64,000 nucleotides of DNA from Sinohyriopsis cumingii (lineage: Eukaryota > Mollusca > Bivalvia > Unionida > Unionidae): contig CM068835.1 of NCBI GenBank assembly GCA_028554795.2, positions 35,544,401 to 35,608,400 on the forward strand, given 5' to 3'. Both the position numbers and the translations under genes were made by a program. How positions within the stretch are numbered: the stretch's first letter is position 1; the number at the start of each line of letters is the position of its first letter. Below are positions 4,611-24,313 of the stretch, piece after piece. The notes beneath the pieces were generated by a model. The model made no database searches. It was not told the DNA's origin and saw nothing but the letters and a program-made list of their open reading frames with translations.

Positions 4611-4943
4611 AGTAGTGAATGGGGATCCTATAGGGTCTATGGGACTTATCATTAAAAATACCCTTGGGACAATATAGGGTCTATGTAAATTTAACATGGA
4701 GAAAAATCGTGGGACAATATAGGGTCTATGGGAATTAACATGGCCAAAAACCCCTGGGACAATATAGGGTCTATGTAAATTTAACATGGCCAAAAAATCC
4801 CTGGGACTGTATAGGGTCTATGTAAAATTGAAACAGGGAGGGACTCTATTTTTTTAAAAAAAAAAAAATAAAAAAGGGGTAGGCAACTGAAAGGCTATCT
4901 CTTTTCGAGATATATGGCTGGCCCTGAAAAGGCCCTTTGGGTT
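4611..4943 (+). repeat. Left terminal inverted repeat of element B
   Basis: It is the reverse complement of 23995-24313 with only a few differences, including a longer A/T run near 4850-4875 and one base in the stem-loop. The outer part holds four variants of a unit of about 55 bp with the core GGGACAATATAGGGTCTATG. The inner part holds a histone-type 3' processing signal that ends the outward-facing gene at 4955-5341. Confidence 0.93.
4896..4935 (-). terminator. Histone-type 3' stem-loop plus downstream element, no. 1
   Basis: Read on the minus strand, a 16-nt hairpin (4920-4935) with a TTTC loop lies 20 nt after the stop of the 4955-5341 gene. A purine-rich CTCGAAAAGAGATA element follows at 4896-4912. 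The stem has one mismatched pair compared with the copy in the right inverted repeat. The layout matches histone pre-mRNA 3' ends (stem-loop, then U7-binding element). Confidence 0.7.
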
Positions 4944-4954
4944 TTCTTCTTCTT

Positions 4955-5341
4955 CTAATTTCTTCTTTTCCTCCACCAATTTCTTATTTTGTCTCCTACA
5001 CTCTTCTTCTCTTTCTTTTTTTTCTTCTCCTCCTCTTCTTCTTTCTTCTCTTCCTCCTCTTCTTTCTTCCTCTTTTCATTTTCTTCTTCTTTTTCAATTT
5101 TTTCGTTCCATGTTCTTATTCTTATCTTTTCCTCTTCATCCTCCTTCTCCTCCTTTATTTCCTTCATTACACCACTTATCATATCCTTTGCTTTTCTTAA
5201 ATTGTTAATTTCCATTTTTACTCTATGCGGACTGTAAGAATAATGGTCTTCATTGAGTCGTACGAGCATTTGTTCTATCATTCCCAAATTGTCAAGGACG
5301 TCTTGCAATGATTGGAATTTATCGAGGTGGTTCGAAGCCAT
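4955..5341 (-). CDS. Small coiled-coil protein of tandem cassette 1
   Basis: A 128-residue protein with an ATG start, of unknown function. The first 60 residues look helical (LQDVLDNLGMIEQMLVRLN). Residues about 60-115 are a long Glu/Lys-rich coiled coil, and the C-terminus is basic and tryptophan-containing (NWWRKRRN). It is the first of three minus-strand cassettes with the same layout: upstream element, TATA-like box, small gene, histone-type 3' signal. The helical N-terminus is loosely similar to those encoded at 5765-6127 and 6631-7008. A TATA-like CTATAAG lies 41 nt before the ATG. The charged region alone could be low-complexity noise, but the regulatory layout supports a real gene. 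Confidence 0.7.
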   Translation of the reverse strand: MASNHLDKFQSLQDVLDNLGMIEQMLVRLNEDHYSYSPHRVKMEINNLRKAKDMISGVMKEIKEEKEDEEEKIRIRTWNEKIEKEEENEKRKKEEEEEKKEEEEEKKKKKEKKSVGDKIRNWWRKRRN

Positions 5342-5381
5342 CTTCTTTGTAGAATGGTTCCAACGACGAACATGGTGGGTT

Positions 5382-5419
5382 CTTATAGTGAAAGCGCGGA
5401 CGTGATGGAAAACATCCCC
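5382..5419 (-). promoter_or_regulatory. Cassette 1 promoter: TATA-like box plus shared upstream element
   Basis: CTATAAG (5382-5388, minus strand) is followed directly upstream by a 29-bp element at 5391-5419. On the plus strand this element begins AAAGCGCGGACGTGA and ends GGAAAACATCCCC. It recurs at 6190-6218 and 7071-7099 at the same place relative to the gene. A related second copy lies at 5462-5488. The factor that binds it is unknown. Confidence 0.75.
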
Positions 5420-5461
5420 CTAAAACATATAATTGATCTTACCTAGATCATGACCGAACAT

Positions 5462-5488
5462 CGCGCGTACGTGAAGGAAAACATCCCC
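5462..5488 (-). promoter_or_regulatory. Second, diverged copy of the cassette upstream element
   Basis: CGCGCGTACGTGAAGG followed by AAAACATCCCC repeats the core of the element at 5391-5419 about 70 bp further upstream of the same gene. Confidence 0.6.
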
Positions 5489-5693
5489 TTACTTTCTCAT
5501 TTCATATAATATAACCTCAACTTTACTCTCTACATACTCTAAGAATCAATAAATAAACCCATAATCTACTATTCACACAAACTTACTTCATCATTTACAA
5601 ACACAAACACACAAACACATACACTTCCACTATTAATAAAGAGTTAGTGTTTATATTCACACTACTCTACCTACACACATTGGCAAATCGATT
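5489..5693. other. Spacer between cassettes 1 and 2
   Basis: AT-rich spacer. The part nearest cassette 2 (about 5585-5693) is closely repeated downstream of cassette 3 (about 6459-6560), with GAGTTAGTGTTTAT and TTCACACTACTCTACC in both. This supports origin of the cassettes by tandem duplication. No gene seen. Confidence 0.7.
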
Positions 5694-5735
5694 GTTATTT
5701 CTTTTCTAGAGTATTGGGTAGCCCTGAAAAGGGCT
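5694..5735 (-). terminator. Histone-type 3' stem-loop plus downstream element, no. 2
   Basis: On the minus strand the sequence AGCCCTTTTCAGGGCT (5720-5735) forms a perfect 6-bp stem with a TTTC loop, 30 nt after the stop of the 5765-6127 gene. It is preceded by AAAAC and followed by ACCCA, as in metazoan histone mRNAs. CTAGAAAAGAAATA (about 5697-5710) lies at the position expected for the U7-binding element. Confidence 0.85.
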
Positions 5736-5764
5736 GTTTTGTTTGGAACATCATGGACACCTGG

Positions 5765-6127
5765 TTAATGGTGGCACCTTCTAGGCCTGGCGCCACATAC
5801 ACATCTTATCCCCCAGTTACTTTTTACCTTTTGGGGGGAGAGAGCAGAGGCAGGATATGTCGCTTCAGAATCCCAATTTTCGCTCTCTGGGATTTTGAAA
5901 TTTCTTCTCTCCTTTTCCTCCTCCTCTTCTTTGTTTCTTCTTTCCTCTTTATATCTTCTTTCTTCTTCTTCTTTATATCTTCTCTCCTCCTCTTCTTTGT
6001 TTCTTCTTTCCTCCTCTCTTATCCTTCCCTCCTCGACAATGGCTTCCGCGGCCAGTTCATTTAATATGCGCCTGGCATATTCCAGATGCACATGAAGCTC
6101 CAACAGTTTCTCAAGTCTCGTGTTCAT
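5765..6127 (-). CDS. Small coiled-coil protein of tandem cassette 2
   Basis: A 120-residue protein from the ATG at 6127; the frame is open to 6151 but with no upstream ATG. Residues 1-30 (RLEKLLELHVHLEYARRIL) resemble the N-terminus of the cassette 3 protein (KLAKLNEAYVNLHRVRHSL), so the two are paralogues. Residues about 35-80 are a repetitive EEERRYKEE coiled coil. The tail holds several Cys and Arg residues. A GTATAAA box lies 54 nt upstream next to the shared upstream element, and a histone-type 3' signal lies 30 nt downstream. Function unknown. The small size and repetitive coil limit homology inference. Confidence 0.72.
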   Translation of the reverse strand: MNTRLEKLLELHVHLEYARRILNELAAEAIVEEGRIREEERRNKEEEERRYKEEEERRYKEERRNKEEEEEKERRNFKIPESENWDSEATYPASALSPQKVKSNWGIRCVCGARPRRCHH

Positions 6128-6180
6128 TTTTTGGTGTTGATCAATCAACAAGGGTAGCTGGACTGCCGAACGAGTTTCAA

Positions 6181-6218
6181 TTTATACTGAAAGCGCGGAC
6201 GTGATGGAAAACATCCCC
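6181..6218 (-). promoter_or_regulatory. Cassette 2 promoter: TATA box plus shared upstream element
   Basis: GTATAAA on the minus strand (6181-6187) abuts the 29-bp element at 6190-6218, identical by eye to the one at 5391-5419. The similarity continues upstream (CTTACCTAGATCAT), so the promoter block was duplicated as a unit. Confidence 0.78.
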
Positions 6219-6560
6219 CTAATAACATAAAATTCATCTTACCTAGATCATAACCAAAAAAACAACAACAACGCGCGGGCCTAAAAGAAACACTCACTCA
6301 CTTTTTTATGCTACCCATCACTATTGTAAAATTTTTGATAAATCACTTCAATAGACTATCCACATACGCAAAGCAATTCAATCTAACTCCAAATATACAC
6401 CTCAAACACCAAAAAACATCATTTTAATCTACTATCCACACCAACTTATGTGAGCGCTTACAAACACAAACACACCAACACATACCTTCACATTTTTAAA
6501 AGCAAGAGTTAGTGTTTATTTTCACACTACTCTACCTACACGCATTGGCAAATTAATAGT
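6219..6560. other. Spacer between cassettes 2 and 3
   Basis: AT-rich, with no gene seen. Its right part repeats the spacer at 5585-5693. Small CAACAACAAC and ACAAACACAAACAC runs are present. Confidence 0.7.
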
Positions 6561-6601
6561 TATTTCTTTTCTAGAGTATTGGGGTAGCCCTGAAAAGGGC
6601 T
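6561..6601 (-). terminator. Histone-type 3' stem-loop plus downstream element, no. 3
   Basis: Minus-strand AGCCCTTTTCAGGGCT (6586-6601) lies 30 nt after the stop of the 6631-7008 gene. It is preceded by an A-rich flank, followed by ACCCC, and then by CTAGAAAAGAAATA (6561-6574). The element is the same as no. 2 apart from one added C in the 3' flank. Confidence 0.85.
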
Positions 6602-6630
6602 GTTTTTTTGTTTGCTATGGCATTCTTTTT

Positions 6631-7008
6631 TTAGTTTCTAAGAATGCGATGTCCTCTGAGGATAGACTTTCTGGCGATAGGTCTGCTTCTTCGGAAAGAG
6701 AAGAAGAACTCTTTGGTGTCGATACGGCAATCGACAAAGCCTCTGTCAGCTTCAGGTTGCTGCTGCTGCTGCTGTTGTTGCTGTTGTTGCTGCTGTTGCT
6801 GCTGTTGCTGCTGTCTCTGAAGTCTGTACTTCTCTGTCCATTCTTCTTTCTCCCTGTTCATTTCTTCTCTGAAGAGTTCTTCTATCAGGTCTTCAGTGAT
6901 TTTTAACATTCTCACATTCTCTATTTCTTCTGGCTTTGGTATCAGACTGTGTCTGACCCTATGCAAATTCACGTAGGCTTCGTTGAGCTTAGCTAGTTTG
7001 GAGCACAT
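6631..7008 (-). CDS. Small polyglutamine protein of tandem cassette 3
   Basis: A 125-residue protein from the ATG at 7008; the frame is open to 7032 without an earlier ATG. The N-terminal helix resembles that of cassette 2. A charged segment (EELFREEMNREKEEW) leads to a run of about 20 glutamines coded by mixed CAG and CAA codons (about 6750-6815). The C-terminus is rich in Arg and Ser. Upstream are a weak TATA-like CTTTAAG and the shared element; downstream is a histone-type 3' signal. Function unknown. The mixed codons suggest the Gln run is not simply a recent CAG expansion. Confidence 0.72.
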   Translation of the reverse strand: MCSKLAKLNEAYVNLHRVRHSLIPKPEEIENVRMLKITEDLIEELFREEMNREKEEWTEKYRLQRQQQQQQQQQQQQQQQQQQQPEADRGFVDCRIDTKEFFFSFRRSRPIARKSILRGHRILRN

Positions 7009-7061
7009 CTTCGTAGGAGGATGAGTCGACAATGGATGGTTAGACTGGGAACAAACCGGTT

Positions 7062-7099
7062 CTTAAAGTCAAAGCGCGGACGTGAAGGAAAACATCCCC
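7062..7099 (-). promoter_or_regulatory. Cassette 3 promoter: TATA-like box plus shared upstream element
   Basis: CTTTAAG on the minus strand (7062-7068) replaces the TATA of the other cassettes. The element at 7071-7099 differs from the other two at only one position by eye (GTGAAGG for GTGATGG). It lies about 60 nt before the ATG, as in cassette 2. Confidence 0.73.
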
Positions 7100-7204
7100 A
7101 CACGGTTTTCGAGTCGCAACGTTCAGTGAGTGTCATGAGAGGGATAGTAAGAAATGAAAGAGCATCAATCCAACATTCTTATAGCTAAACAAACCACAAA
7201 GGCA

Positions 7205-7410
7205 TTTTTTTCAAAACACAACATTTTTTATTCAAAAATCACTTAACACTAAACAACAACAACTCTAACATTTTTTAACAATAATCCAACACTATAACAT
7301 CAAACAATTTTTTTCAAAACACAACATTTTTATTCAAAAATCACTTAACACTAAACAACAACAACTCTAACATTTTTTAACAATAATCCAACACTACAAC
7401 ATCAATCAAT
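7205..7410. repeat. Tandem duplication (about 103 bp, two copies) carrying poly(A) signals
   Basis: Two nearly identical units lie at about 7205-7307 and 7308-7410, just beyond the stop of the protease gene. Each carries AATAAA on the minus strand (7227-7232 and 7329-7334). These are the likely polyadenylation signals for the minus-strand capsid/protease block, in contrast to the histone-type ends of the neighbouring cassettes. Confidence 0.85.
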
Positions 7411-7428: not shown

Positions 7429-7989
7429 CTACTTTAAACAGGGCTGACAACGTTGTGAATGAAATTGTGATTTCCACTGTTGGAAATCATTAGGCCATTG
7501 ATGGACACTACGTTTCCTAGCTTGAGACAAAAGATAAGCATAATGGTCACAAAACCATCGATCTACTTTCACATCATTTCTAGCAGAAGAACGAGGATCA
7601 AAATGAGTCACTAAATGTTCTAAGGAATAGCCCAGGCTGCGATGATGCAGAAAATACACACAGTACTGTCCACACACCAAGGAATCTGTACCTTGTAATT
7701 TCACATTATTGAATCGGGTGGTTTGAGCATTTCTTCTCATAAAGTCAATGATATCGTCTTCCAAAGGGGGCAATCCGTACGAATCGAAATATTCCACACA
7801 TCCTTCTTGAGGAAAGTAGACGGCTACCCAGTGGGTTCCTGGGAGATGACTGTCGTCTGTGTTGATCACGTAAGCTTGATGGTCTTTAGGTTTGCGATGA
7901 GGGAGTTCATCTTTAGCACAGACGACAGGATTCCAAGAAGACGTATACGAACTGTGGTTCAAAAGGTAATAAAGTTCCCAGGTATCCAT
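7429..7989 (-). CDS. PRO: Adenain-like cysteine protease (Polinton PRO)
   Basis: A 186-residue protein from the ATG at 7989. Family members are maturation proteases of Polintons and adenoviruses (Ulp1/C5 fold) that cut capsid precursors inside the particle. The catalytic residues can be seen: His53 in GTHWVAVYF, Asp69 in EYFDSYG, Gln99 and Cys106 in LQGTDSLVCGQYC. The seven-residue Gln-to-Cys spacing is the same as in adenovirus protease. It is the last gene of the capsid block and is followed by two AATAAA signals. The length is slightly below the 200 residues usual for the family. All catalytic positions are intact, so this part of the element appears undamaged. Confidence 0.92.
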   Translation of the reverse strand: MDTWELYYLLNHSSYTSSWNPVVCAKDELPHRKPKDHQAYVINTDDSHLPGTHWVAVYFPQEGCVEYFDSYGLPPLEDDIIDFMRRNAQTTRFNNVKLQGTDSLVCGQYCVYFLHHRSLGYSLEHLVTHFDPRSSARNDVKVDRWFCDHYAYLLSQARKRSVHQWPNDFQQWKSQFHSQRCQPCLK

Positions 7990-8527: not shown

Positions 8528-9835
8528 CTAGTAATCTAGAATGACTTCTCTCAAACTGTTGATTTCTATGGTATTATCGAATTCTGCATACAGGATGACG
8601 TTCACTGTCTCTTTCAGTGGTTCTGCAAACTGAAGTTCCACACGAATCTGGCCAGATTTTATAGGGTGGAAATGTCCCTCGTCGCTGCCTTGGTCTGGAG
8701 TGAAATCAAAAGCCCACAAAGCATAGCCTCCTGCATAATCTTCGTACGTAATGCCGTGACTGGTGTTGGTTCCTAACTGTCCGGTGGCTTCGTACAGGGA
8801 CAAGTACGATCTCAAGTAATTCTTCTTGTCAAAGTCAGGTTCGAAAGGTCGGGTACACAAGGTTTTGCCATCGCGACTGACTTCCATTTTCTTCACCTTG
8901 AAGTGTTTAAAGTTGAAAGGATTTTTACCCAAATCTCCGTTGAAGGCTGCATTCTCGACGATACCAATGATTAAACGCTTGGGTAGCTGTCCTTGGAACA
9001 GATGATCTTCGATCATGGAATGATGTCCAACGGGAATGGTGAACGTTTTCACTTCCACGCGTCGTATGGGATACTTGGCGGTCGTTCTGCTCAATGTTTG
9101 ACTGATGTCGTTACCCACTTTAGGTAACACTTCCACGCGTCGTACGTAGAGCCTGGCTACCTCGATGACAGTTTTGCAAGCGTCACTACCTATCAAATGG
9201 AAAGCGGCACTGCTACGATTCAGTCTCAGGCGGACATTCACCCCGTTCAGCAAATATTTCTCTTGCAACCACATGTCCAAATGCAAACGATCCATTAGTT
9301 CTAAACTCTGTCCATCTTTGATTCTGTTTCTTCGTTCTACAAATCCGTCATTGTTGTCTTTGGTAGCAGTAGTTTCGAAATTTTCAAACTTGTCAGCTTC
9401 GTCAGCTTCCCATAGCACACAGGCATTGAGATGAGTGTTCTTGGCATCTATTCCGTACGTCAAGAGATTTTCCAGGTACGCTCGATAAGGGTAAGTATCC
9501 ATGCTGCTGCTGACCAGTTTGTTGTTCAAGTACAAGTCCACTCCGCTAAACAAGGAATGCATGAAATTGTTGACGGGAGCTATTATCTCATCCTTTTCTA
9601 GGGGCGAATTATCCTCATCGACAACTTTGACTTTCAAGTACAAGTAACTGCTATTCAGATCGATGTAATCTTCGGGCTGTCCTTTGATTTCAAACTCGAT
9701 GGGAGCTGAGGCTGTCAATGAGGAGACGGGATGAAATTCCACCCACTGGGATTCTTGCATGGTCATCATGGTGGGGGGCATGGCAAACAGATCCAGTTCC
9801 GTCTTGGAACAAGCGCAAGACTCTCGGTGCATCAT
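8528..9835 (-). CDS. Major capsid protein, double jelly-roll (hexon-like)
   Basis: A 435-residue protein with an ATG start (a second ATG follows at 9832). It matches the invertebrate protein group often labelled F54H12.2-like, which is the Polinton/adintovirus major capsid family. Recognisable stretches are the early EFEIKGQPEDYIDLNSSYLY strand region, a FMHSLFSGVDLYLN segment and a YDFTP-like stretch (ALWAFDFTPDQG) near the C-terminus. The C-terminal part reads IRVELQFAEPL then NVILYAEFDN, as in jelly-roll proteins. It would form the trimeric capsomers of an icosahedral particle. It is followed 6 bp later by the 8052-8522 gene and preceded by the core-type protein. It is intact, and a decayed homologue lies at 31293-32420. 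Confidence 0.88.
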   Translation of the reverse strand: MMHRESCACSKTELDLFAMPPTMMTMQESQWVEFHPVSSLTASAPIEFEIKGQPEDYIDLNSSYLYLKVKVVDEDNSPLEKDEIIAPVNNFMHSLFSGVDLYLNNKLVSSSMDTYPYRAYLENLLTYGIDAKNTHLNACVLWEADEADKFENFETTATKDNNDGFVERRNRIKDGQSLELMDRLHLDMWLQEKYLLNGVNVRLRLNRSSAAFHLIGSDACKTVIEVARLYVRRVEVLPKVGNDISQTLSRTTAKYPIRRVEVKTFTIPVGHHSMIEDHLFQGQLPKRLIIGIVENAAFNGDLGKNPFNFKHFKVKKMEVSRDGKTLCTRPFEPDFDKKNYLRSYLSLYEATGQLGTNTSHGITYEDYAGGYALWAFDFTPDQGSDEGHFHPIKSGQIRVELQFAEPLKETVNVILYAEFDNTIEINSLREVILDY

Positions 9836-11631: not shown

Positions 11632-12744
11632 TCACTTCTTCTTTTTATAGTCGATGACTTGCGAAGCGTCGATCCAAGAATCGAAACTGGGTGGATATCC
11701 TTTCCAACGTACTTTGACTTCTTTAACACGTCGTTTGCCCACTTTACGGGTTCTGCGTTCGAGAATGCTTTCGATGTCGTACACGTCGTCTTCTTTTTTG
11801 GTGACACGTTGTAACTCGGGTAAATAAAACGTTCCTTTGAGTACTTCTCCGTTCATGTCTTCCAATTTATAGACGGTAGGATGACGACCATGCACTCGTC
11901 CAGTGACGCGAAACAATTCGGTCGTCCAGTTAGGTAAGTAACCTTTGTCGAAAGTGCGTTTGGTTTTGCCAATGCGCACCCAATCTCCTACGGTCAACTC
12001 TCCACTTTTCTTGGGGACAGCCCTCGTCGGGGACGTACCAAACAGGCGCTCGAACACCAGCACTTCGTTGTCGGGAGTCACGTCTTGCGGGGCACGTCCG
12101 ATGCTTCGATGGTAAGATTGGTTGTACGCTTGCACCAGGTGCGGTAAGATGTCGATATACTTCAGAGTGTGGTGATGCGTAAAATATTTCCACATGCGTT
12201 CTTTCAAAGTGCGTTGAAAACGTTCCACGATGCTGGCTTTGGTTTCGGGATTCTCGGTGGTAAAAAAATGAATGTCACGTTTCTTTAATTCTTTTTGGAA
12301 AGCTTGGTTTAGAAATTCGGTGCCTTTGTCCGTTTGCCATCGAAGAGGGTGACGACCGCTTTGTTTCAACACCCGTTGTAAGGCTCGCACTAACTCGCTG
12401 CTCGATTTGGAAGTCAAGGGCACGACCCAGGCAAATTTGGAAAAGACGTCGATGACACAGAACAAATATTTGTAGCCACGATTGTAGCTGGCCAAATGAG
12501 AGACATCGGCTAAATCGGCTTGCCATTGATGATCGATGCCTTCCACTCGGGTGCAACTTCTGGCAAACTTGCGTCGAATGGGTTTGTGTAAAGTGTAGGT
12601 AGCTTGTTCTTGTAACCATCGTTGCACTTGAGGTAAACGGAGACTTTTCAGTCGCGTTTTGGCAGCACGATACAATTTTTGAACTCCTGCGTAACCTGCA
12701 GGATGGGAGGGATCGTAGTAAATGCTGGCTAAGACTTTTTCCAT
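11632..12744 (-). CDS. INT: Retroviral-type integrase with C-terminal chromodomain
   Basis: A 370-residue protein that inserts the element into host DNA. The catalytic triad is visible as Asp77 (WQADLAD), Asp139 (QTDKGTEF) and Glu174 (IVERFQRTLKERMW), with retroviral spacing. Residues about 230-315 hold the basic SH3-like region (VGDWVRIGKTKRTFDKGYLPNW). Residues about 321-366 form a chromodomain (YDIESILERR, then VRWKGYPPSFDSWIDA), with the Tyr and Trp residues expected for an aromatic cage. The N-terminal HHCC zinc finger typical of retroviral integrases is not evident. It lies between the membrane protein and the 210-residue protein and is intact. Its decayed homologue is at 28322-29357. 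Confidence 0.95.
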   Translation of the reverse strand: MEKVLASIYYDPSHPAGYAGVQKLYRAAKTRLKSLRLPQVQRWLQEQATYTLHKPIRRKFARSCTRVEGIDHQWQADLADVSHLASYNRGYKYLFCVIDVFSKFAWVVPLTSKSSSELVRALQRVLKQSGRHPLRWQTDKGTEFLNQAFQKELKKRDIHFFTTENPETKASIVERFQRTLKERMWKYFTHHHTLKYIDILPHLVQAYNQSYHRSIGRAPQDVTPDNEVLVFERLFGTSPTRAVPKKSGELTVGDWVRIGKTKRTFDKGYLPNWTTELFRVTGRVHGRHPTVYKLEDMNGEVLKGTFYLPELQRVTKKEDDVYDIESILERRTRKVGKRRVKEVKVRWKGYPPSFDSWIDASQVIDYKKKK

Positions 12745-14901: not shown

Positions 14902-15645
14902 TTATGGGGAGTGAAATGAAGTCGAGGACGGAGACGTGTACAGGACAGGCCCTCCGTCTTGGCACCAGTGGTGAAACAAGTGGGTACGAAATCGCAAATC
15001 CTCGGGGGTGGTAGGTTTCAAATCGACGAGTAAATAGGCGTGTGGCGTTTGAGTGGCATCGTCGTACGCCTGAGTCAGCCAAGGCGTTCCTAACTGTTTG
15101 GCTAAGACTTGCACTTGCGATTTATCTCGAGGGCTTTTAAACAAGACCACGTAATGCGCATTGAGACTGATGGTGCGATGGGCTTTACTTTGTTGAAACA
15201 AATTTTGGGTGATGTAAACGACACTGGCATTACGGTGATGCCCTTTGCGCGTGAACCACAATTTAATTTCTTCTTCGTCTTCTCCTAACATGTCGTCGAA
15301 AATGACCAAATGGGTTTGACGGGAGTCAGAGACGATGCCGTCGTCTTCTTTAGGAATGCCTTCCACAAACACGATGGAATCGCCTTGACTTTCTCGCAAG
15401 AGGCTGTACGCCGATTGCCACTCTTTGTAACACCACACGATCCGTTGAGGGGGTCGATCGATCAAATGATGTTTATGTTCGATCAAACGTTTGACGAATT
15501 CGGTTTTGCCTGAACCGCTAGGTCCAGCAATGAGCATGTTAAAGGGATGGCGAAGATACAAAGCCTCCCAACTGGCACGATCTAAGTGTTCGTCGATGAC
15601 TTTGACAGTAGAGGAAGAGGGAGCAGAGAGAGCAGAGGTAGCCAT
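14902..15645 (-). CDS. ATP: Packaging ATPase, FtsK/HerA (A32-like)
   Basis: A 247-residue protein from the ATG at 15645; the longer frame to 15684 begins with TTG and overlaps the TATA region. The Walker A motif is GPSGSGKT (41-48) and the Walker B motif LVIFDDML (113-120). A YITQNLFQQ segment (144-152) matches the glutamine-containing sensor motif of the genome-packaging HerA/FtsK superfamily. It would pump the element's DNA into preformed capsids using ATP. TATATAAACT at 15691-15700 lies 46 nt upstream. Intact; decayed copy at 25130-25850. Confidence 0.92.
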   Translation of the reverse strand: MATSALSAPSSSTVKVIDEHLDRASWEALYLRHPFNMLIAGPSGSGKTEFVKRLIEHKHHLIDRPPQRIVWCYKEWQSAYSLLRESQGDSIVFVEGIPKEDDGIVSDSRQTHLVIFDDMLGEDEEEIKLWFTRKGHHRNASVVYITQNLFQQSKAHRTISLNAHYVVLFKSPRDKSQVQVLAKQLGTPWLTQAYDDATQTPHAYLLVDLKPTTPEDLRFRTHLFHHWCQDGGPVLYTSPSSTSFHSP

Positions 15646-17314: not shown

Positions 17315-17953
17315 TCAATGTCTCGGTCCCACTAAGGGTAAGTAATGACAATTCGGTGACCATCGAGCATGTTCTACGTAGGCCGAATCTTGCGGTTCCC
17401 AGTGGTGAAGTGACACACCGCAACTGAAGCACTTGACTTTATCTCCTTCGCCCAAGTAGAAAAATCCGGCTCTGGCTAATTCTTCGGGGGTCGGTCCTCC
17501 CAGATACTTAGGCCATTTTCCTTTGAACGATTGAAGACGATTTTCAAAGTCGCAGTATTCCGACAAACGCACAGGGAACGAATATTCGTCTTTCACAGGT
17601 TCGTTTCGATGAGGGTTGAGTGACATAGGTAGGAGTTTGCTCAGGGCTGGATGACATCCGTAGGGGGGTAGACGTGAAGGTGAACATTCCCCTTTAAAAC
17701 GAAACCCAGTAAAATGTCCAAGAGGACGAGCGGCATCACTTTCGCATCCCACAGGTTTGACACGCACAACATCACTTTCCATGATAGGGGTAGGGACACT
17801 GAAGTTCCCATGATGCTTTACGGCATCGCTCAGGTCACAACGTACAGCATCGTACCCATCGCAAGGCTCACAATCGCATTCCACTTCAGAAGCCTCACAC
17901 TTGAATTGTGCCTTTCTAAACAACTTGTTCTGTGTTTCTCTGAAAGTATTCAT
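17315..17953 (-). CDS. BIR-domain (IAP-like) protein
   Basis: A 212-residue protein with one BIR domain at about 126-206. The zinc ligands are Cys175, Cys178, His195 and Cys202 (CX2C, X16, H, X6, C) in KCFSCG, WEPQDS, EHARW and NCHYL. The conserved Gly/Phe core (AGFFYLGEGDKVKCFSCG) is intact. BIR domains bind caspases or IAP-antagonist peptides and are used by several insect and mollusc DNA viruses to delay cell death. There is no RING, so no built-in ubiquitin ligase. Residues 1-110 are unusual and cysteine-rich, and contain SPSRLPPYGCHPALSKLLP. A TATATAAAAAGG box lies 54 nt upstream. It was probably captured from a host or virus. The domain call is firm; the role is inferred. Confidence 0.9.
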   Translation of the reverse strand: MNTFRETQNKLFRKAQFKCEASEVECDCEPCDGYDAVRCDLSDAVKHHGNFSVPTPIMESDVVRVKPVGCESDAARPLGHFTGFRFKGECSPSRLPPYGCHPALSKLLPMSLNPHRNEPVKDEYSFPVRLSEYCDFENRLQSFKGKWPKYLGGPTPEELARAGFFYLGEGDKVKCFSCGVSLHHWEPQDSAYVEHARWSPNCHYLPLVGPRH

Positions 17954-17985: not shown

Positions 17986-20985
17986 CTATCGATCTTGCCT
18001 AGGGTTCCTTTTTATATACAGACCAATACCGACGTGACCGTACGGCAACGTAAAGTGATTGGGAAGTCGCACTCGCTTCTGGTATACAATTTGATAGACT
18101 TTTTCCAAGGGTCGACTGACGATGTGGTGAGTGGGTAAACGTACAATCTTGTTCGGTTGATAGGTGGTCACTTTAAAGTTTCCATCCTCTCCCGATTGCA
18201 AGGCTTCTTTCAATACCCCAAAGTTGACCACTCGACTGGTACGATAATTCAGAGTCAGTCCTTTCACTTTGCACGTCGTGTGCACTTCTCCTTGTTTGTC
18301 CCGGTATTCGTAGCCGTAATTTTTGGGACCGCCACTGACGAAACTTAGAATCTTGTCGTCGGGATGTTCGTCTGTCCAGGCTCCTAAACGGTCTCCTTCG
18401 ATGTTAGGGTGATGTTGAATCGGGTGATGGATGTAAATGCAACTGTCCGTGTCAAAGTACAGGACGCGTTCCCCTAACAGTTCTAAAGCTTCGTACAATT
18501 TTAAGCGAGCATGAGCTGTCACGTAAGCCGCAATGATGACATTTCCAAAAGGGTCGTCTTGTACAAAGTCCAGATCTTCTTCGTAATTGACCAAGATCAA
18601 ATTCTCTCGAACGACGTCCACGTGTTTCATGTATTTGGTTTTGTCGTGAATCATCTGGAAGTAGCGGGAAGGTTCTGTCAAATATTCCGTCTTGGGTAAA
18701 CACGGTCGTTGTGCCATTTTACCCCACAAGCAATTTAACATCACTTTGGCAAACGATCGCCTGCCTTCGTTTATCTCGATGTGGTCTAAAGTGATGCCTT
18801 CTTGTTCATAGTATTTCTCTTTGAATTTTATTTGGTCTTCGGGAGTGTGACACCAGGAAGGATAGCCACTGGCTTCTTGCTTCAGTTTCAAAAAGGCATC
18901 CACGTAGTCTGCGAAAATGCCTTTCTGCGTGGGGTCACCCTTGCGGTATTGTTGTGTCTTGGGAAAGTGGCAAATTTCGTACACTTCTAACAGTTGGTAT
19001 CCCATGTCCAGAGCTTTGAACAATTCTACGCTGACCCAGGTTCCCGTCAAGGCCCGTTTTTCCTGGATGTGATGGCAAGGTTGGTCTTGGTTGCACGTTT
19101 CGGCACAAGTACGGCACAAGGGAAACATCAGTTTGCCTTGACAATGGTGAGGTAAGACGGGATGGTATAGGTTCGTGGGAGGCAAAACTTTGCACTTGAT
19201 CAAGCCTTCGTATTGTCGAATGTTTTTCAGGTCGATGTGTTCCGTCAGCAATTGCGGGTGCCCTACGGGAAAGCGACAATATTTGCACACGTAGGGATAC
19301 AGCGAACACACGTCCAAGTATTTGATTTCTTCTCCTTTCTCTTCGTCGGCTTGGTACAGCAAACAGGTGGCATTGGTCCTTCCTCCGTACAAACTATCCC
19401 TCGGGTTCAGAGGGTCCATGAACTGGTAACTTTCCACGAGGCGTTTAAACTCGGGATCGGTTTTCATACGGTGATCGTACTCGTGTTCCCACATTTCCAC
19501 CACTTGGTATCCTTGCTGTTCTAACTTTAGGCGCCGCTGACAAGTGTCCTGGTACAAGTCTTCCATGGTTCGTTGCAAAAACTGATTTTTGGTGCCACGG
19601 TCAGGGTAACAGATGGGACATCCGTGAAATAAGCAACCGTTAAACTCGTACACGATCTTGGGGTTTTCTAAGTCCCAGCCATCGACCGAATACGTTCCGA
19701 TGGTCTTTTCGCCCCCTCCGTTGCGGGCATGCTGAATCCACTTGTCTTCCTTGTCGCACAAGTAATGTAACCAACGTAGGGCTTTGACCGAGTATTGACG
19801 TTTGACAAAGTTTGTCGTTTGAGGACTGATGACAGCCACGGTCTTTTCAGGCATGAATCGTTGTCGGTACACTAAGGAACACGCTTTGGCAATGGTGCAA
19901 GCTTCTTTCAAAGGATCGACCCCTCCGTGTTCCATGAACAGTTCTCGAAATTTTCCACAGCAACGCCGTAAAATGTCCACGTCGGAACGACAATACTTTA
20001 GCATTTCTTCCTGAAAGTCGAAAGGGTCCGAGGCGTGAGCCTGGTACCAAGCATAGAAAGCTTCTCGTTGTTCGGTACGCATGTTGTCGGGGTCGTAATA
20101 GTGAGCCTCAGGTAAATGGGGTAGAACGGCGTGTTGATTGGCTTCCGTATTGAAAAAGTGTGGAAAGTACCCTTTAGCCATTTCTGTCATTCCAAACGTT
20201 TTAGGCATTCGACTCAAAGGCATGGCCAAATAGCTCATCGAATCTTTAAACTGTACTTGTCCCACTTGCATGAAAATGATTTTGGCTCCGTTCAAAGTCA
20301 CTTTAGGACGTTCGGTGCCTTGTTCCGTATAGTACCTCAAAAGAAACTGTCCATCGTATCCGGAGAAATTGTGAGCCATCACCGTGGCATGACGATGACA
20401 ATCTCCGTAAAGTTCGATGTCCTCTTGGCTCCATGTCTTGTCGATCGGGTCTAAGACCCATTGGGCAAAATCGGCTAACGTGTTCGGTCCCCGAAAGATT
20501 TTTTCACGCCCTCCAGGAATCTTGCTACAGTGAGGGCAATGACTGAAGATAGGTTCTTGAATGCACTTCTCGCACGCTCGATGAGCCACGCAGAAATTAG
20601 GAATGTGAATGCCTGTCTCTTGCATGCATTCGAAATCGAAAAAGATGAAATTGCCTTTCTTCTTGTGACCATCCTCTTTCTCTGGTGGGGGTTGGTATTT
20701 TTGCACGTAACATTGGTGTTCCAAGTCCACGATGTGGTGCCAAATGTGACATTTTTTCTTTCCTCGACATACGTGTGCCTTGGTACTATTGGTACGTATG
20801 ACTTGTTCACACGTAGGGCACAATCTCAGGAGTTGACAGCACATTTCTGCTGTGAACCTTGCGTTTTCAGATGTTGTTGGTAACAGGTAGGGCTGACAAA
20901 CGTGCGCAGACAAGTTGAACAAGGCACTGGTTCTTCGCTCAGACAGGGTGAAGAGGCCAAACATCCTGAGCATTTCGATCCACAA
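17986..20985 (-). CDS. POLB: Protein-primed family B DNA polymerase, C-terminal part (frame 2)
   Basis: An open frame of 999 codons. Real homology begins only after about residue 48, where zinc-binding cysteines resume (LCPTCEQVI). Exonuclease motifs: ExoI FFDFE (Asp117, Glu119), ExoII AHNFSGYDGQF (Asp211), ExoIII YCRSDVDIL (Asp335). A cysteine-rich EFNGCLFHGCPICYPDR segment lies near 447-462. Polymerase motifs: A YLDVCSLYP (556-564), B KVMLNCLWGK (747-756), C YFDTDS (843-848). All catalytic acids are present. It copies the element from a terminal protein primer. The first part of the protein is in another frame (20826-22043), so the gene is split. It is followed by the BIR gene after 33 nt. 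Confidence 0.93.
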   Translation of the reverse strand: MWIEMLRMFGLFTLSERRTSALFNLSAHVCQPYLLPTTSENARFTAEMCCQLLRLCPTCEQVIRTNSTKAHVCRGKKKCHIWHHIVDLEHQCYVQKYQPPPEKEDGHKKKGNFIFFDFECMQETGIHIPNFCVAHRACEKCIQEPIFSHCPHCSKIPGGREKIFRGPNTLADFAQWVLDPIDKTWSQEDIELYGDCHRHATVMAHNFSGYDGQFLLRYYTEQGTERPKVTLNGAKIIFMQVGQVQFKDSMSYLAMPLSRMPKTFGMTEMAKGYFPHFFNTEANQHAVLPHLPEAHYYDPDNMRTEQREAFYAWYQAHASDPFDFQEEMLKYCRSDVDILRRCCGKFRELFMEHGGVDPLKEACTIAKACSLVYRQRFMPEKTVAVISPQTTNFVKRQYSVKALRWLHYLCDKEDKWIQHARNGGGEKTIGTYSVDGWDLENPKIVYEFNGCLFHGCPICYPDRGTKNQFLQRTMEDLYQDTCQRRLKLEQQGYQVVEMWEHEYDHRMKTDPEFKRLVESYQFMDPLNPRDSLYGGRTNATCLLYQADEEKGEEIKYLDVCSLYPYVCKYCRFPVGHPQLLTEHIDLKNIRQYEGLIKCKVLPPTNLYHPVLPHHCQGKLMFPLCRTCAETCNQDQPCHHIQEKRALTGTWVSVELFKALDMGYQLLEVYEICHFPKTQQYRKGDPTQKGIFADYVDAFLKLKQEASGYPSWCHTPEDQIKFKEKYYEQEGITLDHIEINEGRRSFAKVMLNCLWGKMAQRPCLPKTEYLTEPSRYFQMIHDKTKYMKHVDVVRENLILVNYEEDLDFVQDDPFGNVIIAAYVTAHARLKLYEALELLGERVLYFDTDSCIYIHHPIQHHPNIEGDRLGAWTDEHPDDKILSFVSGGPKNYGYEYRDKQGEVHTTCKVKGLTLNYRTSRVVNFGVLKEALQSGEDGNFKVTTYQPNKIVRLPTHHIVSRPLEKVYQIVYQKRVRLPNHFTLPYGHVGIGLYIKRNPRQDR
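18007..18018 (-). promoter_or_regulatory. TATA box of the BIR gene
   Basis: TATATAAAAAGG on the minus strand lies inside the 3' end of the polymerase gene, 54 nt before the BIR ATG. It suggests the BIR gene has its own promoter. Confidence 0.7.
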
Positions 20986-22043
20986 TGCTTGTGTTGCTCT
21001 CGATTATTATAACCATGGTCACATTTCTCACAGTAATAACCGTATCCCAGGAATCCGGTGATACTGGTAATGGTATCGAAATGGTCATCGTGATGATAAA
21101 CATGAATGTATTTTCCGTCCTTAAAATCTTGCCCTCGAAACAACAGAGACCCGCGCACTTCTTGAGGGTGCACTTTCAAAGTGTATCGTGGAGCTAGGGC
21201 ATCTTGCAATTTTTGCATCTCAGGAATGCCACAGGGTGTGTCTTTGGACATGCCAGCTTGTCGTAACAGGAGTTCTGCTTCACTTCGTTGTTTGGCTCGG
21301 TCCGATTGTCGAATGTTCTCCCAGTCTCTTTTCCATTCTGCCGTGTCGTTCTTGTTGACATAGGTTCGTCCCACCACGATGGCACGGGCTAAACACATCT
21401 GGTCATGAGGATTGTGAATTTGGACAAGGCTACGCTTAATGCTGCGAAGGTCGTTCACCAATAACATCTTTTTGCGTCCGGTCCCTTGAGGAGGAGAGAC
21501 GTGGGTCATGTCCAATGTGGCTTTTCCATCGGTGATGTCAAACTGGTCATTAGATTGTTGCACGTGTTGAATCTTGTCCATGACTTTGGAAGCGGTCAAT
21601 TCTGCAGGGGTGCTAAACTCGATCCAAACAGGGGATTTCAAACCGTCGTGTTGTATGGAAAGTCTCAAGCGATCGTCTTCTTTGGGTTGACATTGTCGCT
21701 TGAGTGAAGTGAGCAGAGAATCCCACACTCCGGTGATGAACCCTTCTGCTTTCTCTAACGGTACTTCAGCCTTGAAATCTTTAAACTTCACCGTGTATTT
21801 GTAAGCCGTGGTTCTAAATTTTCTAGAGGAGCGCTTTTCCGTCTCTCGAATGGAATAGTAATTTTCAGGGTTGACTAAGGGTGGTGAAATTGGTTTAGAG
21901 GTTTCAAATTCTGGTTCACTCATGTCCTCTTCAAAATCACTGGCATGAATTTGTTCCAAGATTTCAGCCCTGGTACGAGGCGATAGATCACGTTTCTGCC
22001 TCTTACTTTCTTCTTTCTTCTCGAATGAATTAGATCGTTTCAT
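20826..22043 (-). CDS. POLB: Protein-primed family B DNA polymerase, N-terminal part (frame 1)
   Basis: A 405-codon frame from the ATG at 22043. It matches the N-terminal part of Polinton polymerases: MCLARAIVVGRTYVNK (about residues 218-233), CGIPEMQKLQ, then YIHVYHHDDHFDTITSITGF, and cysteine pairs YYCEKCDHGYNN and CSTCLRTF that look like zinc ribbons. It ends in a TGA at 20826-20828. The rest of the protein continues in the -1 frame, with 160 nt of overlap. The frame change must lie near 20826-20870, because the cysteine pattern runs up to there in this frame. Family members usually have one unbroken gene. A CTATAAAG box lies 48 nt before the ATG (22091-22098). Confidence 0.88.
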   Translation of the reverse strand: MKRSNSFEKKEESKRQKRDLSPRTRAEILEQIHASDFEEDMSEPEFETSKPISPPLVNPENYYSIRETEKRSSRKFRTTAYKYTVKFKDFKAEVPLEKAEGFITGVWDSLLTSLKRQCQPKEDDRLRLSIQHDGLKSPVWIEFSTPAELTASKVMDKIQHVQQSNDQFDITDGKATLDMTHVSPPQGTGRKKMLLVNDLRSIKRSLVQIHNPHDQMCLARAIVVGRTYVNKNDTAEWKRDWENIRQSDRAKQRSEAELLLRQAGMSKDTPCGIPEMQKLQDALAPRYTLKVHPQEVRGSLLFRGQDFKDGKYIHVYHHDDHFDTITSITGFLGYGYYCEKCDHGYNNREQHKHCGSKCSGCLASSPCLSEEPVPCSTCLRTFVSPTCYQQHLKTQGSQQKCAVNS

Positions 22044-22177
22044 CTTGAAAGCAAAAAGTCAAATGACTCAAGTTCAAACACCATGAGCTACTTTATAGTC
22101 ATAGCAGACCAGCGTATATAAAAGGGTGTGTGTCTTATCCTTTCACTATTCATTTCACTCTCAAGCCGAGCACAACG
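22044..22177. promoter_or_regulatory. Divergent promoter between polymerase and zinc-knuckle genes
   Basis: CTATAAAG on the minus strand (22091-22098) serves the polymerase (48 nt to ATG). TATATAAAAG on the plus strand (22115-22124) serves the zinc-knuckle gene (54 nt to ATG). The two boxes are under 20 bp apart, so the genes are probably switched on together. Confidence 0.78.
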
Positions 22178-22651
22178 ATGGAAGAGACTAACCAGATGGA
22201 ACGTTTCGTCAGAGCTTTGCGAGGGGTCATTAGAAAATTCTCTTCAGACCAGCCTACGGACTACTCTCCTTCCTTTAGAGATAAAAGTCAAGATACTTGC
22301 TATATCTGTCAGAAGAAAGGGCATTGGTCTTCAGAGTGTCCAGACCGTCAAAAAAGAACAAAAACAGGGACTAAAAAAGACAAAAGTCAAGATACCTGTT
22401 ATTATTGTAAAGAAAAAGGACATTGGTCTCCAGATTGCCCAAAAAAGAAACAAGAGGAATCAGAAGAAAAGAGGAATTCTTCAGAAGAAGAGAGGGATTC
22501 TTCGGAGGAAGAGAGGGATTCTTCTGAGGAAGAAAGAAGACAGGTGAAGAAAAAGAAACAGGAGAAAAAAAGAAAAAGGGAAGAAAGCGAGGAGGAAGAA
22601 GAAGAGGAAAAGAGTGTGACGGTGAAAAAATTCAAAAAACAGAGAGACTAA
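22178..22651 (+). CDS. Double zinc-knuckle (CCHC) protein with acidic/basic tail
   Basis: A 157-residue protein from the ATG at 22178. An in-frame ATG at 22130 lies only 6 nt after the TATA box and is rejected. Two CX2CX4HX4C zinc knuckles lie at 41-54 (CYICQKKGHWSSEC) and 74-87 (CYYCKEKGHWSPDC), each led by KSQDTC, so one arose from the other by duplication. The tail has tandem SSEEERD units and mixed Lys/Glu runs, which look like casein-kinase sites and a nuclear-targeting region. Zinc knuckles of this type bind single-stranded nucleic acid. It is transcribed opposite to the polymerase and ends with AATAAA at 22738-22743. The exact role is unknown. Confidence 0.82.
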   Translation: MEETNQMERFVRALRGVIRKFSSDQPTDYSPSFRDKSQDTCYICQKKGHWSSECPDRQKRTKTGTKKDKSQDTCYYCKEKGHWSPDCPKKKQEESEEKRNSSEEERDSSEEERDSSEEERRQVKKKKQEKKRKREESEEEEEEEKSVTVKKFKKQRD

Positions 22652-22737
22652 ACAAGGAGACAGAAGAAGTCAATGAACTTTTTAATTAAAGTGCTGTGTT
22701 GTGAATTGTGAATTGGATTGTAAAAAATGGAGAAAAG

Positions 22738-22743
22738 AATAAA
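22738..22743 (+). terminator. Polyadenylation signal of the zinc-knuckle gene
   Basis: AATAAA lies 87 nt after the stop, in AAAGAATAAATTAATG. Confidence 0.65.
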
Positions 22744-22885
22744 TTAATGATATAAGGTAAGTGTCTTTGAGTTGTGATTTTAAAATAAGAAGCTACACTC
22801 ACGCACTCATACACAGACACGTACTATAAGGTAAAATGGGTGGGTTATTTTTTTTTTGTGTGGAGTTATTGGCAAATTGAAATTG

Positions 22886-22925
22886 TATTTCTTTTCGAGA
22901 AATGTGGGTGGCCCTGAAAAGGGCC
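22886..22925 (-). terminator. Histone-type 3' stem-loop plus downstream element, no. 4
   Basis: Minus-strand GGCCCTTTTCAGGGCC (22910-22925) has a perfect 6-bp stem and TTTC loop, 22 nt after the stop of the 22947-23528 gene. It is preceded by an A run and followed by ACCCA. CTCGAAAAGAAATA (about 22886-22899) follows at U7-element spacing. This is the best match to the metazoan histone consensus in the window. Confidence 0.88.
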
Positions 22926-22946
22926 TTTTTTGGTGCAGGGGTGAGT

Positions 22947-23528
22947 TTAAGCAATCAACTTTAACTGCCTTAAGCCTTTGCCACGGCCAAGGCCTACTTC
23001 TGGACTACGTAATGTTGATGATGATAATGATTGAGTTGAAATCACTAAGGGTGGTACGGTAGGCTTAGTCACAGGGTTGACGTGTTTAGCTCGGGAAGGT
23101 CGTATTCTCTTCGGTCGTGATAAAGAAGTCTGATACATTTGTTTCAGACTTCTTAACTCCGCTAAAATGTCCAACAGTACCGTGACCGTTTGATTTTCAC
23201 CCTCTTGTTTCTTTGCTGCTACTTCTTCTTCTTGCTGTTGCTGCTGTTGTTTTTTTCTTACCTCTTCTTCTTGCTGTTGCTGTAGGAGAAAAGCCTGTTC
23301 CGCTTCCTTTTGTCGTTGTATAAATTTCTCCAATTCTTCTTTCTGTCTCTGTCTAAAATTCTCCACTTGCGGTAATGAAGAAGGTAACGCAGGTTCCGGA
23401 ACAAATTCTTGCGAGGAGAGAAAATCCACAAAATCCCAATTCACCTCTTCTGAAAGTAAATCCGGGTTCCCTTGGGCGGTCTCCGCTGCTGGTGCACCCC
23501 ATTGGATCGTTTTCTGAGTTTCCGTCAT
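22947..23528 (-). CDS. Glutamine-rich coiled-coil protein with histone-type mRNA end
   Basis: A 193-residue protein from the ATG at 23528. Residues 1-50 are acidic and aromatic (NWDFVDFLSSQEF). Residues about 53-108 are a Gln/Glu coiled coil with two Gln runs (QQQQEEEVRKKQQQQQQEEE). Residues about 115-135 form a helix (VTVLLDILAELRSLKQMY). The tail is basic with RPKRIRPSRAK, a likely nuclear signal. No family recognised. Like the three cassettes at the other end of the element it ends in a histone-type stem-loop, but its promoter is different: it shares a divergent promoter with the 23748-23978 gene. Confidence 0.72.
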   Translation of the reverse strand: MTETQKTIQWGAPAAETAQGNPDLLSEEVNWDFVDFLSSQEFVPEPALPSSLPQVENFRQRQKEELEKFIQRQKEAEQAFLLQQQQEEEVRKKQQQQQQEEEVAAKKQEGENQTVTVLLDILAELRSLKQMYQTSLSRPKRIRPSRAKHVNPVTKPTVPPLVISTQSLSSSTLRSPEVGLGRGKGLRQLKLIA

Positions 23529-23747
23529 GTTGAATCACTGTCGCATAGATTGACTGCACACAAGCGCTAGCAAATCTATATTGACTACGTGACGTCACAG
23601 ACTGCTCTCTTCGGATTGGATGAGGCTGGCTGAATTTTGTAACGCGTGTTCGGATTGGTGAATGAACTCAATCCGTTTCAATCCTGCCTCTGCCTATAAA
23701 TAAGCGCCGTTGACTGCATTGATTCACCTGTTTCTCGGAGCCTCAAG
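23529..23747. promoter_or_regulatory. Divergent promoter with CRE and CCAAT boxes
   Basis: The palindrome TGACGTCA (23590-23597) matches a cAMP-response/ATF element. Two ATTGG words (CCAAT on the minus strand) lie at about 23614 and 23654. TATAAATA (23695-23702) is 46 nt before the plus-strand ATG. A weaker TATAGAT on the minus strand (about 23572-23580) is placed for the leftward gene. Confidence 0.72.
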
Positions 23748-23978
23748 ATGTGGACTGACGTTCAATCTTCAACCCTTGTGTCAACAATGATGTTCAGGAC
23801 GGACATGCTCATGTATGTCCGGTCCAAGTGGACTGTTGTTGATAGGACAGATACAAGTCTATGGATGAGGAGAGTTTATATAGAAAGACAAGGATGTCTC
23901 AAGAGGGTACTTGTGTATGGACCGGCAGTTAGAAGGAGTTTAAGAAGAAGAAGATGTGACAGATGCCATCTATGTTAA
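23748..23978 (+). CDS. Small basic protein next to the right inverted repeat
   Basis: A 76-residue protein with an ATG start. The N-terminus is rich in Met, Thr and Val. The C-terminus is very basic, ending RRSLRRRRCDRCHLC with a CX2CX2C arrangement that could hold a metal. No family recognised. TATAAATA lies 46 nt before the ATG. A histone-type stem-loop (24003-24018), inside the right inverted repeat, lies 24 nt after the stop. It mirrors the outward-facing gene at the left end (4955-5341), so each end of the element closes with the same kind of gene end. Confidence 0.62.
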   Translation: MWTDVQSSTLVSTMMFRTDMLMYVRSKWTVVDRTDTSLWMRRVYIERQGCLKRVLVYGPAVRRSLRRRRCDRCHLC

Positions 23979-23994
23979 TATTAATATTAACATA
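23971..23994. repeat. Perfect 24-bp palindrome at the inner edge of the right inverted repeat
   Basis: TATGTTAATATT followed by its exact reverse complement. It overlaps the stop codon of the 23748-23978 gene and ends one base before the repeat starts. The left inverted repeat has no equivalent. Confidence 0.9.
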
Positions 23995-24313
23995 AACCCA
24001 AAGGCCCTTTTCAGGGCCAGCCATATATCTCGAAAAGAGATAGCCTTTCAATTGCCTACCCCTTTTTTATTTTGTTTTAGAGTCCCTCCCTGTTTCAATT
24101 TTACATAGACCCTATACAGTCCCAGGGATTTTTTGGCCATGTTAATTCCCATAGACCCTATATTGTCCCACGATTTTTCTCCATGTTAATTCCCATAGAC
24201 CCTATATTGTCCCACGATTTTTCTCCATGTTAAATTTACATAGACCCTATATTGTCCCAAGGGTATTTTTAATGATAAGTCCCATAGACCCTATAGGATC
24301 CCCATTCACTACT
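23995..24313 (-). repeat. Right terminal inverted repeat of element B
   Basis: Near-exact reverse complement of 4611-4943. It holds histone-type signal no. 5 at its inner end and three to four GGGACAATATAGGGTCTATG-type units at its outer end. It ends in ACTACT at 24313. Confidence 0.93.
24003..24042 (+). terminator. Histone-type 3' stem-loop plus downstream element, no. 5
   Basis: Plus-strand GGCCCTTTTCAGGGCC (24003-24018) is preceded by CCCAAA and followed by AGCCA, then by TCTCGAAAAGAGATA (24028-24042). The downstream element can also fold as a small hairpin. The stem is perfect, unlike the copy in the left repeat. Confidence 0.87.

What the first reader, a model, noticed from the sequence alone, without database searches (positions are those of the whole stretch)
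4896..24042. A Polinton whose small genes end in histone-type mRNA 3' processing signals
Five small genes of element B (stops at 4955, 5765, 6631, 22947 on the minus strand and 23978 on the plus strand) are each followed after 20-30 nt by a hairpin of the form GGCCCTTTTCAGGGCC or AGCCCTTTTCAGGGCT. It has an A-rich 5' flank, a TTTC loop and a 3' flank of ACCCA or close to it. A purine-rich (T/C)C(G/T)AGAAAAGA-like element with core GAAAAGARATA lies about 10-17 nt further on. That is the full layout of metazoan replication-dependent histone pre-mRNAs (SLBP stem-loop, U7 element). I know of no report of Polintons using it. It would give non-polyadenylated mRNAs made mainly in S phase, when the element's DNA could replicate.
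Basis: partly seen in the sequence, partly recalled or inferred. Interest (0 to 1): 0.92.

Follow-up and report, generated by a model that had tools for sequence, protein, structure and literature searches.

The report
Polinton genes with histone-type mRNA ends
A virus-like mobile element in an animal genome ends five of its small genes with the same RNA signals that its host uses to finish histone messages, which suggests that it borrows the host's histone mRNA machinery for part of its own gene set.

Summary
Confirmed and strengthened. Element B (4611-24313) is a Polinton. Five end-proximal small ORFs are followed, 19-29 nt after the stop and in sense, by an Rfam Histone3 hairpin, with GAAAAGA 13 (once 14) nt beyond. 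Two of the five reach Rfam's gathering score. No such site in 500 shuffles. One H3 and one H2B gene of the host carry the same hairpin, the same 13-nt spacing and TCTAGAAAAGA. The best 30 of 75 Histone3 matches scored in the 2.9-Gb host genome all lie beside homologues of these Polinton genes, none beside a core histone. The signals outlast gene divergence. A neighbouring gene has a poly(A)-type hexamer in 27 of 28 mostly young copies and no hairpin. A distant Polinton contig shows the same layout; six other partial contigs do not. I infer SLBP/U7 processing of the end-proximal genes. S-phase timing is untested; neither U7 nor SLBP was found in the assembly. The listings of ten literature searches showed no precedent.

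The parts
4611..24313 (.). Element B, a Polinton; ends AGTAGTGAATGG.../...CCATTCACTACT, flanked by tACATA / cACATA (5 of 6 bases alike, possible target duplication)
4611..4944 (+). left terminal inverted repeat (93% to right); contains a histone-type signal
23994..24313 (-). right terminal inverted repeat; contains a histone-type signal
4955..5341 (-). small gene g4955, 128 aa, charged
   Evidence: homologues
4895..4940 (-). histone-type 3' end of g4955 (one non-pair in stem), 24.1 bits
5765..6127 (-). small gene g5765, 120 aa
5695..5740 (-). histone-type 3' end of g5765, AGCCC..GGGCT form, 31.0 bits
6631..7008 (-). small gene g6631, 125 aa, Q-rich
6562..6606 (-). histone-type 3' end of g6631, AGCCC..GGGCT form, 29.3 bits
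22947..23528 (-). small gene g22947, 193 aa, predicted single long helix 53-136 (mean pLDDT 68.1); 20 database homologues
22886..22930 (-). histone-type 3' end of g22947, 41.2 bits
23748..23978 (+). small gene g23748, 76 aa, basic C-terminus
23998..24043 (+). histone-type 3' end of g23748, 35.6 bits
23529..23747 (.). divergent promoter region of g22947/g23748 with CRE-like site, two ATTGG (CCAAT) boxes and TATA, kept in copies
5391..5419 (+). motif shared upstream of the three left genes (others at 5460, 6190, 7071)
22178..22651 (+). neighbouring zinc-knuckle-like gene (my reading of its C/H motifs) without hairpin; A[A/T]TAAA within 200 nt of the stop in 27 of 28 rows
7429..7989 (-). adenain/S273R-like protease; AATAAA at 7334 and 7232 downstream
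8528..9835 (-). putative major capsid protein (32% to the L005 counterpart; fold not verified)
11632..12744 (-). integrase (rve + chromo)
14902..15645 (-). A32-like packaging ATPase
17315..17953 (-). BIR-domain protein
17986..20973 (-). DNA polymerase B (DNA_pol_B_2)

Best explanation
Element B belongs to a high-copy Polinton family whose end-proximal small genes end in working host histone-type 3' processing signals, while at least one neighbouring gene appears to use a poly(A) signal. Shown: the signals match the Rfam Histone3 model and the host's own H3/H2B 3' ends in stem, spacing and downstream element, sit in sense 19-29 nt after stops, and stay conserved among diverged copies. Inferred: host SLBP binds the stem-loop, host U7 snRNP pairs with the CT(A/C)GAAAAGA element, CPSF73 cleaves a few bases after the stem, and the mRNAs end in the stem-loop without poly(A). 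As with histones, that would concentrate production and stability of these small (putatively early or regulatory) proteins in S phase, when element DNA can be copied.
For: Five Histone3 matches, all in B; 0 in 500 shuffles. Host H3 (35.9 bits) and H2B (38.2 bits) have the same stem, 13-nt spacing and TCTAGAAAAGA. The 30 fetched loci (best 30 of 75 matches scored) all hold homologues of these Polinton genes and none a core histone. In copies picked by protein only, the hairpin passes (six standard pairs, at most two departures from consensus) after g22947 in 29 of 30, one of them the window's own copy, and after g23748 in 28 of the 29 scorable there. In 13 g5765 copies (hairpins not used for picking) mean pairwise identity is 0.94 for the stem-loop and 0.98 for GAAAAGA against 0.59 for third codon positions; in 14 g22947 copies 0.96 and 1.0 against 0.81. 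Neighbour gene g22178: poly(A)-type hexamer in 27 of 28 rows, hairpin in 0 of 28. Distant Polinton L005: hairpin 28 nt after the stop of a zinc-finger ORF, element at 13 nt, 35.8 bits, in a separate PolB clade.
Against: No RNA data. U7 and SLBP were not found in the host assembly; the tool's control genomes did not ring for these two families either, and the host's histone ends imply that both exist. Flanks are fairly conserved too: 40 nt after the element 0.89 in g5765 copies, stop-to-stem stretch 0.91 in g22947 copies; third positions of the low-complexity g5765 genes may look too diverged through misalignment. Poly(A)-type hexamers lie 110-455 nt past three of the five stops, so back-up polyadenylation is possible. 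Of the 28 g22178 rows, 25 are near-identical young copies, and one of the two diverged ones (L043) has no hexamer. Six of seven Polinton contigs from contaminated MAGs show no Histone3 match (partial contigs of 3.6-12.7 kb). The other 45 of the 75 genome matches were not looked at.
Confidence: 0.86

Rival explanations
1. Same signals, different benefit: the histone-type end mainly gives short, fast-exported, SLBP-translated mRNAs independent of poly(A), without meaningful S-phase gating.
For: Nothing here shows cell-cycle control of these genes; SLBP also promotes export, translation and stability (PMC7614891, passages).
Against: SLBP is raised before S phase in systems studied, so some gating would be expected. 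The divergent promoter has CRE-like and CCAAT-type boxes, which are not specific to S phase.
Confidence: 0.3
2. Passenger: a histone 3' end was captured once and copied within the element, without present function.
For: The TIR pair and the 5.7/6.6-kb pair are duplicates; many copies are young.
Against: Stem-loop and element are more conserved than third codon positions; stems occur in G-C and A-T outer-pair forms that keep pairing; they follow several gene families and recur in distant L005.
Confidence: 0.05
3. The hairpins work as DNA or generic RNA hairpins (replication or packaging sites, or hairpin-guided polyadenylation as recalled for mimiviruses), and likeness to histone ends is convergent.
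For: Two copies lie in the terminal repeats.
Against: Full match to the host's histone layout including the 13-nt spacing and downstream element; all five in sense after stops.
Confidence: 0.05
4. Dual fate: histone-type processing in S phase, polyadenylation at downstream sites in other states, as reported for some human H2A genes. Compatible with the best explanation.
For: A[A/T]TAAA lies 110, 260 and 455 nt past the stops of g6631, g22947 and g23748; PMC9756948 (passages).
Against: None within 500 nt for g4955 and g5765.
Confidence: 0.3

Closest known systems
Metazoan replication-dependent histone mRNA 3' ends (Rfam RF00032 Histone3; SLBP, U7 snRNP)
   Same: 6-bp stem, 4-nt TTTC loop, A-rich 5' flank, ACCCA-like 3' flank, purine-rich downstream element at the same 13-nt distance as in the host's H3 and H2B
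   Different: Serves non-histone genes of a mobile virus-like element
Polintons/Mavericks and adintoviruses
   Same: PolB, rve+chromo integrase, A32-like ATPase, protease, terminal inverted repeats; PolB near oyster sequences, and 44% to a coral adintovirus
   Different: Histone-type 3' ends on end-proximal genes; the listings of ten searches of the paper library showed no report of this
Viral histone genes (for example bracovirus H4; recalled, only a search listing seen)
   Same: Virus-borne sequence linked to histone biology
   Different: There the gene is a histone; here no core histone was found in the 30 fetched loci with such signals

Membership tests
Histone-type (SLBP/U7) 3' end | 6-bp stem with 4-nt loop matching RF00032 | tested here: met
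   Two of five above the gathering score, three below it at 24-31 bits; one stem has a non-pair
Histone-type (SLBP/U7) 3' end | A-rich 5' flank and ACCCA-like 3' flank | tested here: met
   AAA or AAAAC before the stem; ACCCA or ACCCC in three, AGCCA in the two TIR copies
Histone-type (SLBP/U7) 3' end | purine-rich downstream element at the host's own histone spacing | tested here: met
   13 nt in four of five, 14 in one; 13 in the one host H3 and one H2B gene read
Histone-type (SLBP/U7) 3' end | placed shortly after a stop codon, in sense | tested here: met
   19-29 nt; H3 28, H2B 34
Histone-type (SLBP/U7) 3' end | complementarity to the host U7 snRNA 5' end | tested here: inconclusive
   U7 not found; only indirect, through likeness to host histone elements
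Histone-type (SLBP/U7) 3' end | host encodes SLBP | tested here: inconclusive
   PF15247: 14 candidates scored, no match at E 0.001, controls silent; a laxer search did not complete
Histone-type (SLBP/U7) 3' end | mRNA ends at the stem-loop, no poly(A), S-phase expression | not testable with these tools
   needs RNA
Polinton | DNA_pol_B_2 and rve integrase | tested here: met
Polinton | packaging ATPase and adenain-type protease | tested here: met
   Pox_A32 E 7e-8; protease like S273R E 2.5e-4, adenain only E 0.23
Polinton | double jelly-roll major capsid protein | tested here: inconclusive
   candidate homologous to the L005 one; model too poor, no relevant PDB match
Polinton | terminal inverted repeats | tested here: met
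   93% over 334 nt
Polinton | 6-bp target duplication | tested here: inconclusive
   flanking hexamers tACATA/cACATA differ in one base, in CA-rich sequence

The most novel reading that the evidence does not exclude
Molluscan Polintons run a two-class gene programme: end-proximal regulatory genes are made as non-polyadenylated, SLBP-controlled, S-phase mRNAs, and other genes are polyadenylated, so a virus-like element reads the host replication state directly through the histone mRNA pathway. With 150 or more copies of such a gene, it may also compete with the host histone genes for SLBP and U7.
Probability: 0.5. Interest if true: 0.92.

Novelty: new variant of a known kind. Interest (0 to 1): 0.86.

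Why it matters
Histone-type 3' ends are, as I recall, treated as a near-exclusive mark of replication-dependent histone mRNAs. Finding them on non-histone genes of a mobile DNA element suggests that the pathway can be borrowed. It gives a concrete, testable link between Polinton expression and host S phase, and warns that poly(A)-selected RNA-seq may miss these transcripts. In this genome the 30 best-scoring Histone3 matches all lie in Polintons, so annotation by that model alone would mislead.

Tried and rejected
Chance: rejected. IMG/VR pattern hits L001-L003 sit right beside betaproteobacterial tmRNA genes and are unrelated. Viral contigs gave no usable animal Polinton: searches found none, one remote locus (L004, 28% identity), which had no hairpin in the script scan. 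U7: the pattern gave 39+26 matches against 46+50 for its reversed control, so no excess; the tandem C10 array and L089 were looked at and rejected because no strong 3' hairpin follows. LxCxE motifs were looked for by eye only; none noticed, not a tool result. E2F reading of the GCGCGGACGTGA motif: orientation does not fit the consensus that I recall. The capsid fold could not be confirmed. Older relative A around B: no Histone3 match and no hairpin-plus-element site there. Histone3 control in the genome tool: 1 of 14 control genomes (Lactococcus lactis) rang, below the cut-off. Rows dropped: L012 (23% identity, archaeal MAG) was left out and had no hairpin. One search scored only matches reaching within 12 residues of the C-terminus. 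One search used only loci with both gene starts within 600 nt. L014-L043 were picked by Histone3 score, so their seed hairpins say nothing on conservation; seeds were left out for g5765 and g22947 but not for g23748, whose stem identity of 1.0 is not used. The window's own copy recurs as L044.
Full report
WHAT IS THERE. Element B spans 4611-24313 with inverted repeats 4611-4944 and 23994-24313 (93% alike). It carries an rve+chromo integrase, A32-like ATPase, BIR protein and DNA_pol_B_2, a protease resembling S273R and a capsid candidate homologous to that of another Polinton. It appears to sit inside remains of an older, inverted relative. Rfam Histone3 gives five matches in the 64 kb, all in B: 41.2 and 35.6 bits (above the gathering score of 34) and 31.0, 29.3 and 24.1 bits (below it). 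Each lies in sense 19-29 nt after the stop of a small ORF, with GAAAAGA 13 nt (once 14) beyond the stem. GAAAAGA(A/G)AT occurs five times in the window, always there. None of 500 shuffles of B held one such site (the pattern was fitted to the five). The five are about three independent occurrences, since the two outer ones are in the TIRs and two others lie in a duplicated stretch.

THE HOST'S OWN SIGNAL. The window lies in a 2.905-Gb assembly. Its histone genes form tandem arrays with a unit of about 8.3 kb. The 3' ends of two genes of one array were read; I identify them as H3 and H2B from the Pfam match and their last residues. They have GGCCCTTTTTAGGGCC and GGCCCTTTTCAGGGCC, 28 and 34 nt after the stop, each followed at 13 nt by GAAAAGA within TCTAGAAAAGA. 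The Polinton versions read TCTAGAAAAGA (5.7 and 6.6 kb) or TCTCGAAAAGA (the others). What recognises the host histone element should therefore recognise the Polinton one. U7 itself was not found and SLBP gave no match at E 0.001, with silent controls for both families, so these are gaps and not evidence of absence.

COPIES. The genome search for Histone3 scored 75 of 589472 candidates; all 75 exceed the cut-off and are dispersed. The 30 fetched loci all contain homologues of g4955, g5765, g22947 or g23748, and none a core histone by tblastn; the other 45 were not examined. Independently, a search with the 193-aa protein returned 150 matches (the cap), 95-100% identical, all but one without a stop. 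Of the 30 fetched (one is the window's own), 29 have a passing hairpin after g22947; of 29 scorable g23748 copies in them, 28 do. Among diverged copies the hairpin and GAAAAGA outlast the genes: in 13 g5765 copies 0.94 and 0.98 against 0.59 for third codon positions, in 14 g22947 copies 0.96 and 1.0 against 0.81. The surroundings are not free either: stop-to-stem 0.80 and 0.91, 13-nt spacer 0.85 and 0.85, 40 nt after the element 0.89 and 0.80. Outer stem pairs occur as G-C and A-T, and G-T variants appear. Some copies have damaged stems (L014, L015, L017, L020, L031, L033, L054, L063) or changed elements (for example L016, L025, L037, L039, L042, L043).

TWO CLASSES OF GENES. The gene that converges on g22947, a zinc-knuckle-like ORF at 22178-22651, has A[A/T]TAAA within 200 nt of its stop in 27 of 28 rows and a hairpin in none. 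Of these rows 25 are near-identical young copies; of the two diverged ones, L036 has the hexamer and L043 does not. The protease gene is followed by AATAAA at 7334 and 7232. The hairpin genes are the small ORFs near the ends. g22947 and g23748 share a divergent promoter region: in 47 rows (the window's copy twice) a CRE-like site is found in 47, two ATTGG boxes in 46 and TATA in 46. The three left genes share the motif AAAGCGCGGACGTGA(T/A)GGAAAACATCCCC upstream. g22947 has 20 database homologues and is modelled as one long helix (mean pLDDT 68.1, pTM 0.25).

ELSEWHERE. A scan of GTDB contigs found Polinton-type PolB at eight loci in bacterial or archaeal MAGs; I read seven of them (L005-L011) as animal contamination and left out L012. 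One of the seven, L005, has a Histone3 match of 35.8 bits, 28 nt after the stop of an 89-aa C2H2 ORF near a repeat-rich end, with AAAAAGAG at 13 nt. The other six have none. The nearest named relatives of its PolB include Gigantopelta, Mercenaria and Mactra, those of the window's PolB are mainly oysters. In a midpoint-rooted tree of 46 polymerases the two lie in separate clades of 17 and 16 with support 1.0 each. Both hosts are probably molluscs; this is inference. Database protein P0131 reads on past the usual C-terminus into residues that fit a translated hairpin and element (my reading), a hint from another dataset.

MECHANISM. From published biology (PMC7614891, passages; PMC9756948, passages): SLBP binds the stem-loop, U7 pairs with the downstream element, CPSF73 cleaves between them, and SLBP takes over roles of poly(A) and is raised before S phase. 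Shown here: the cis-signals, their likeness to the host's, placement, conservation, and restriction to some genes. Inferred: cleavage, lack of poly(A), S-phase timing. I put 0.86 on authentic histone-type processing and about 0.5 on a functional S-phase programme.

LITERATURE. Ten searches of the open PMC library were made. Polinton with histone stem-loop, Polinton with SLBP, and adintovirus with polyadenylation and histone each gave 0 papers. The others listed 10 of 10, 12 of 12, 11 of 11, 4 of 4, 20 of 29, 20 of 41 and 15 of 118 papers; no listed title or abstract start reports this. Only listings were seen, apart from passages of the two papers above. Most subscription papers and bioRxiv preprints are not covered.

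Noticed in passing
L005:7189-7695: A Polinton on a contig of a Bacteroidia MAG encodes a TATA-binding protein homologue (PF00352, E 1.2e-27).
   Followed up: no
window 1942-3173 and 24991-33355: Remains of an older related Polinton in inverse orientation appear to surround element B (77-84% for the larger pieces).
   Followed up: partly
window 23529-23747: Divergent promoter region with CRE-like site, two CCAAT-type boxes and TATA, kept in nearly all of 47 rows.
   Followed up: partly
window 5391, 5460, 6190, 7071: 29-nt motif upstream of the three left genes, four times in the window with up to three mismatches and nowhere else in it.
   Followed up: no
window 17315-17953: BIR (inhibitor of apoptosis) domain gene next to PolB.
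   Followed up: no
G000, many contigs: Histone genes in tandem units of about 8.3 kb, mostly on high-numbered contigs; the Polinton gene g22947 has at least 150 near-identical copies.
   Followed up: partly
G000:C10:118969412-119022052: Tandem array, mostly spaced 2588 bp, carrying an Sm-like AATTTGTCTAG site, not U7-like.
   Followed up: partly
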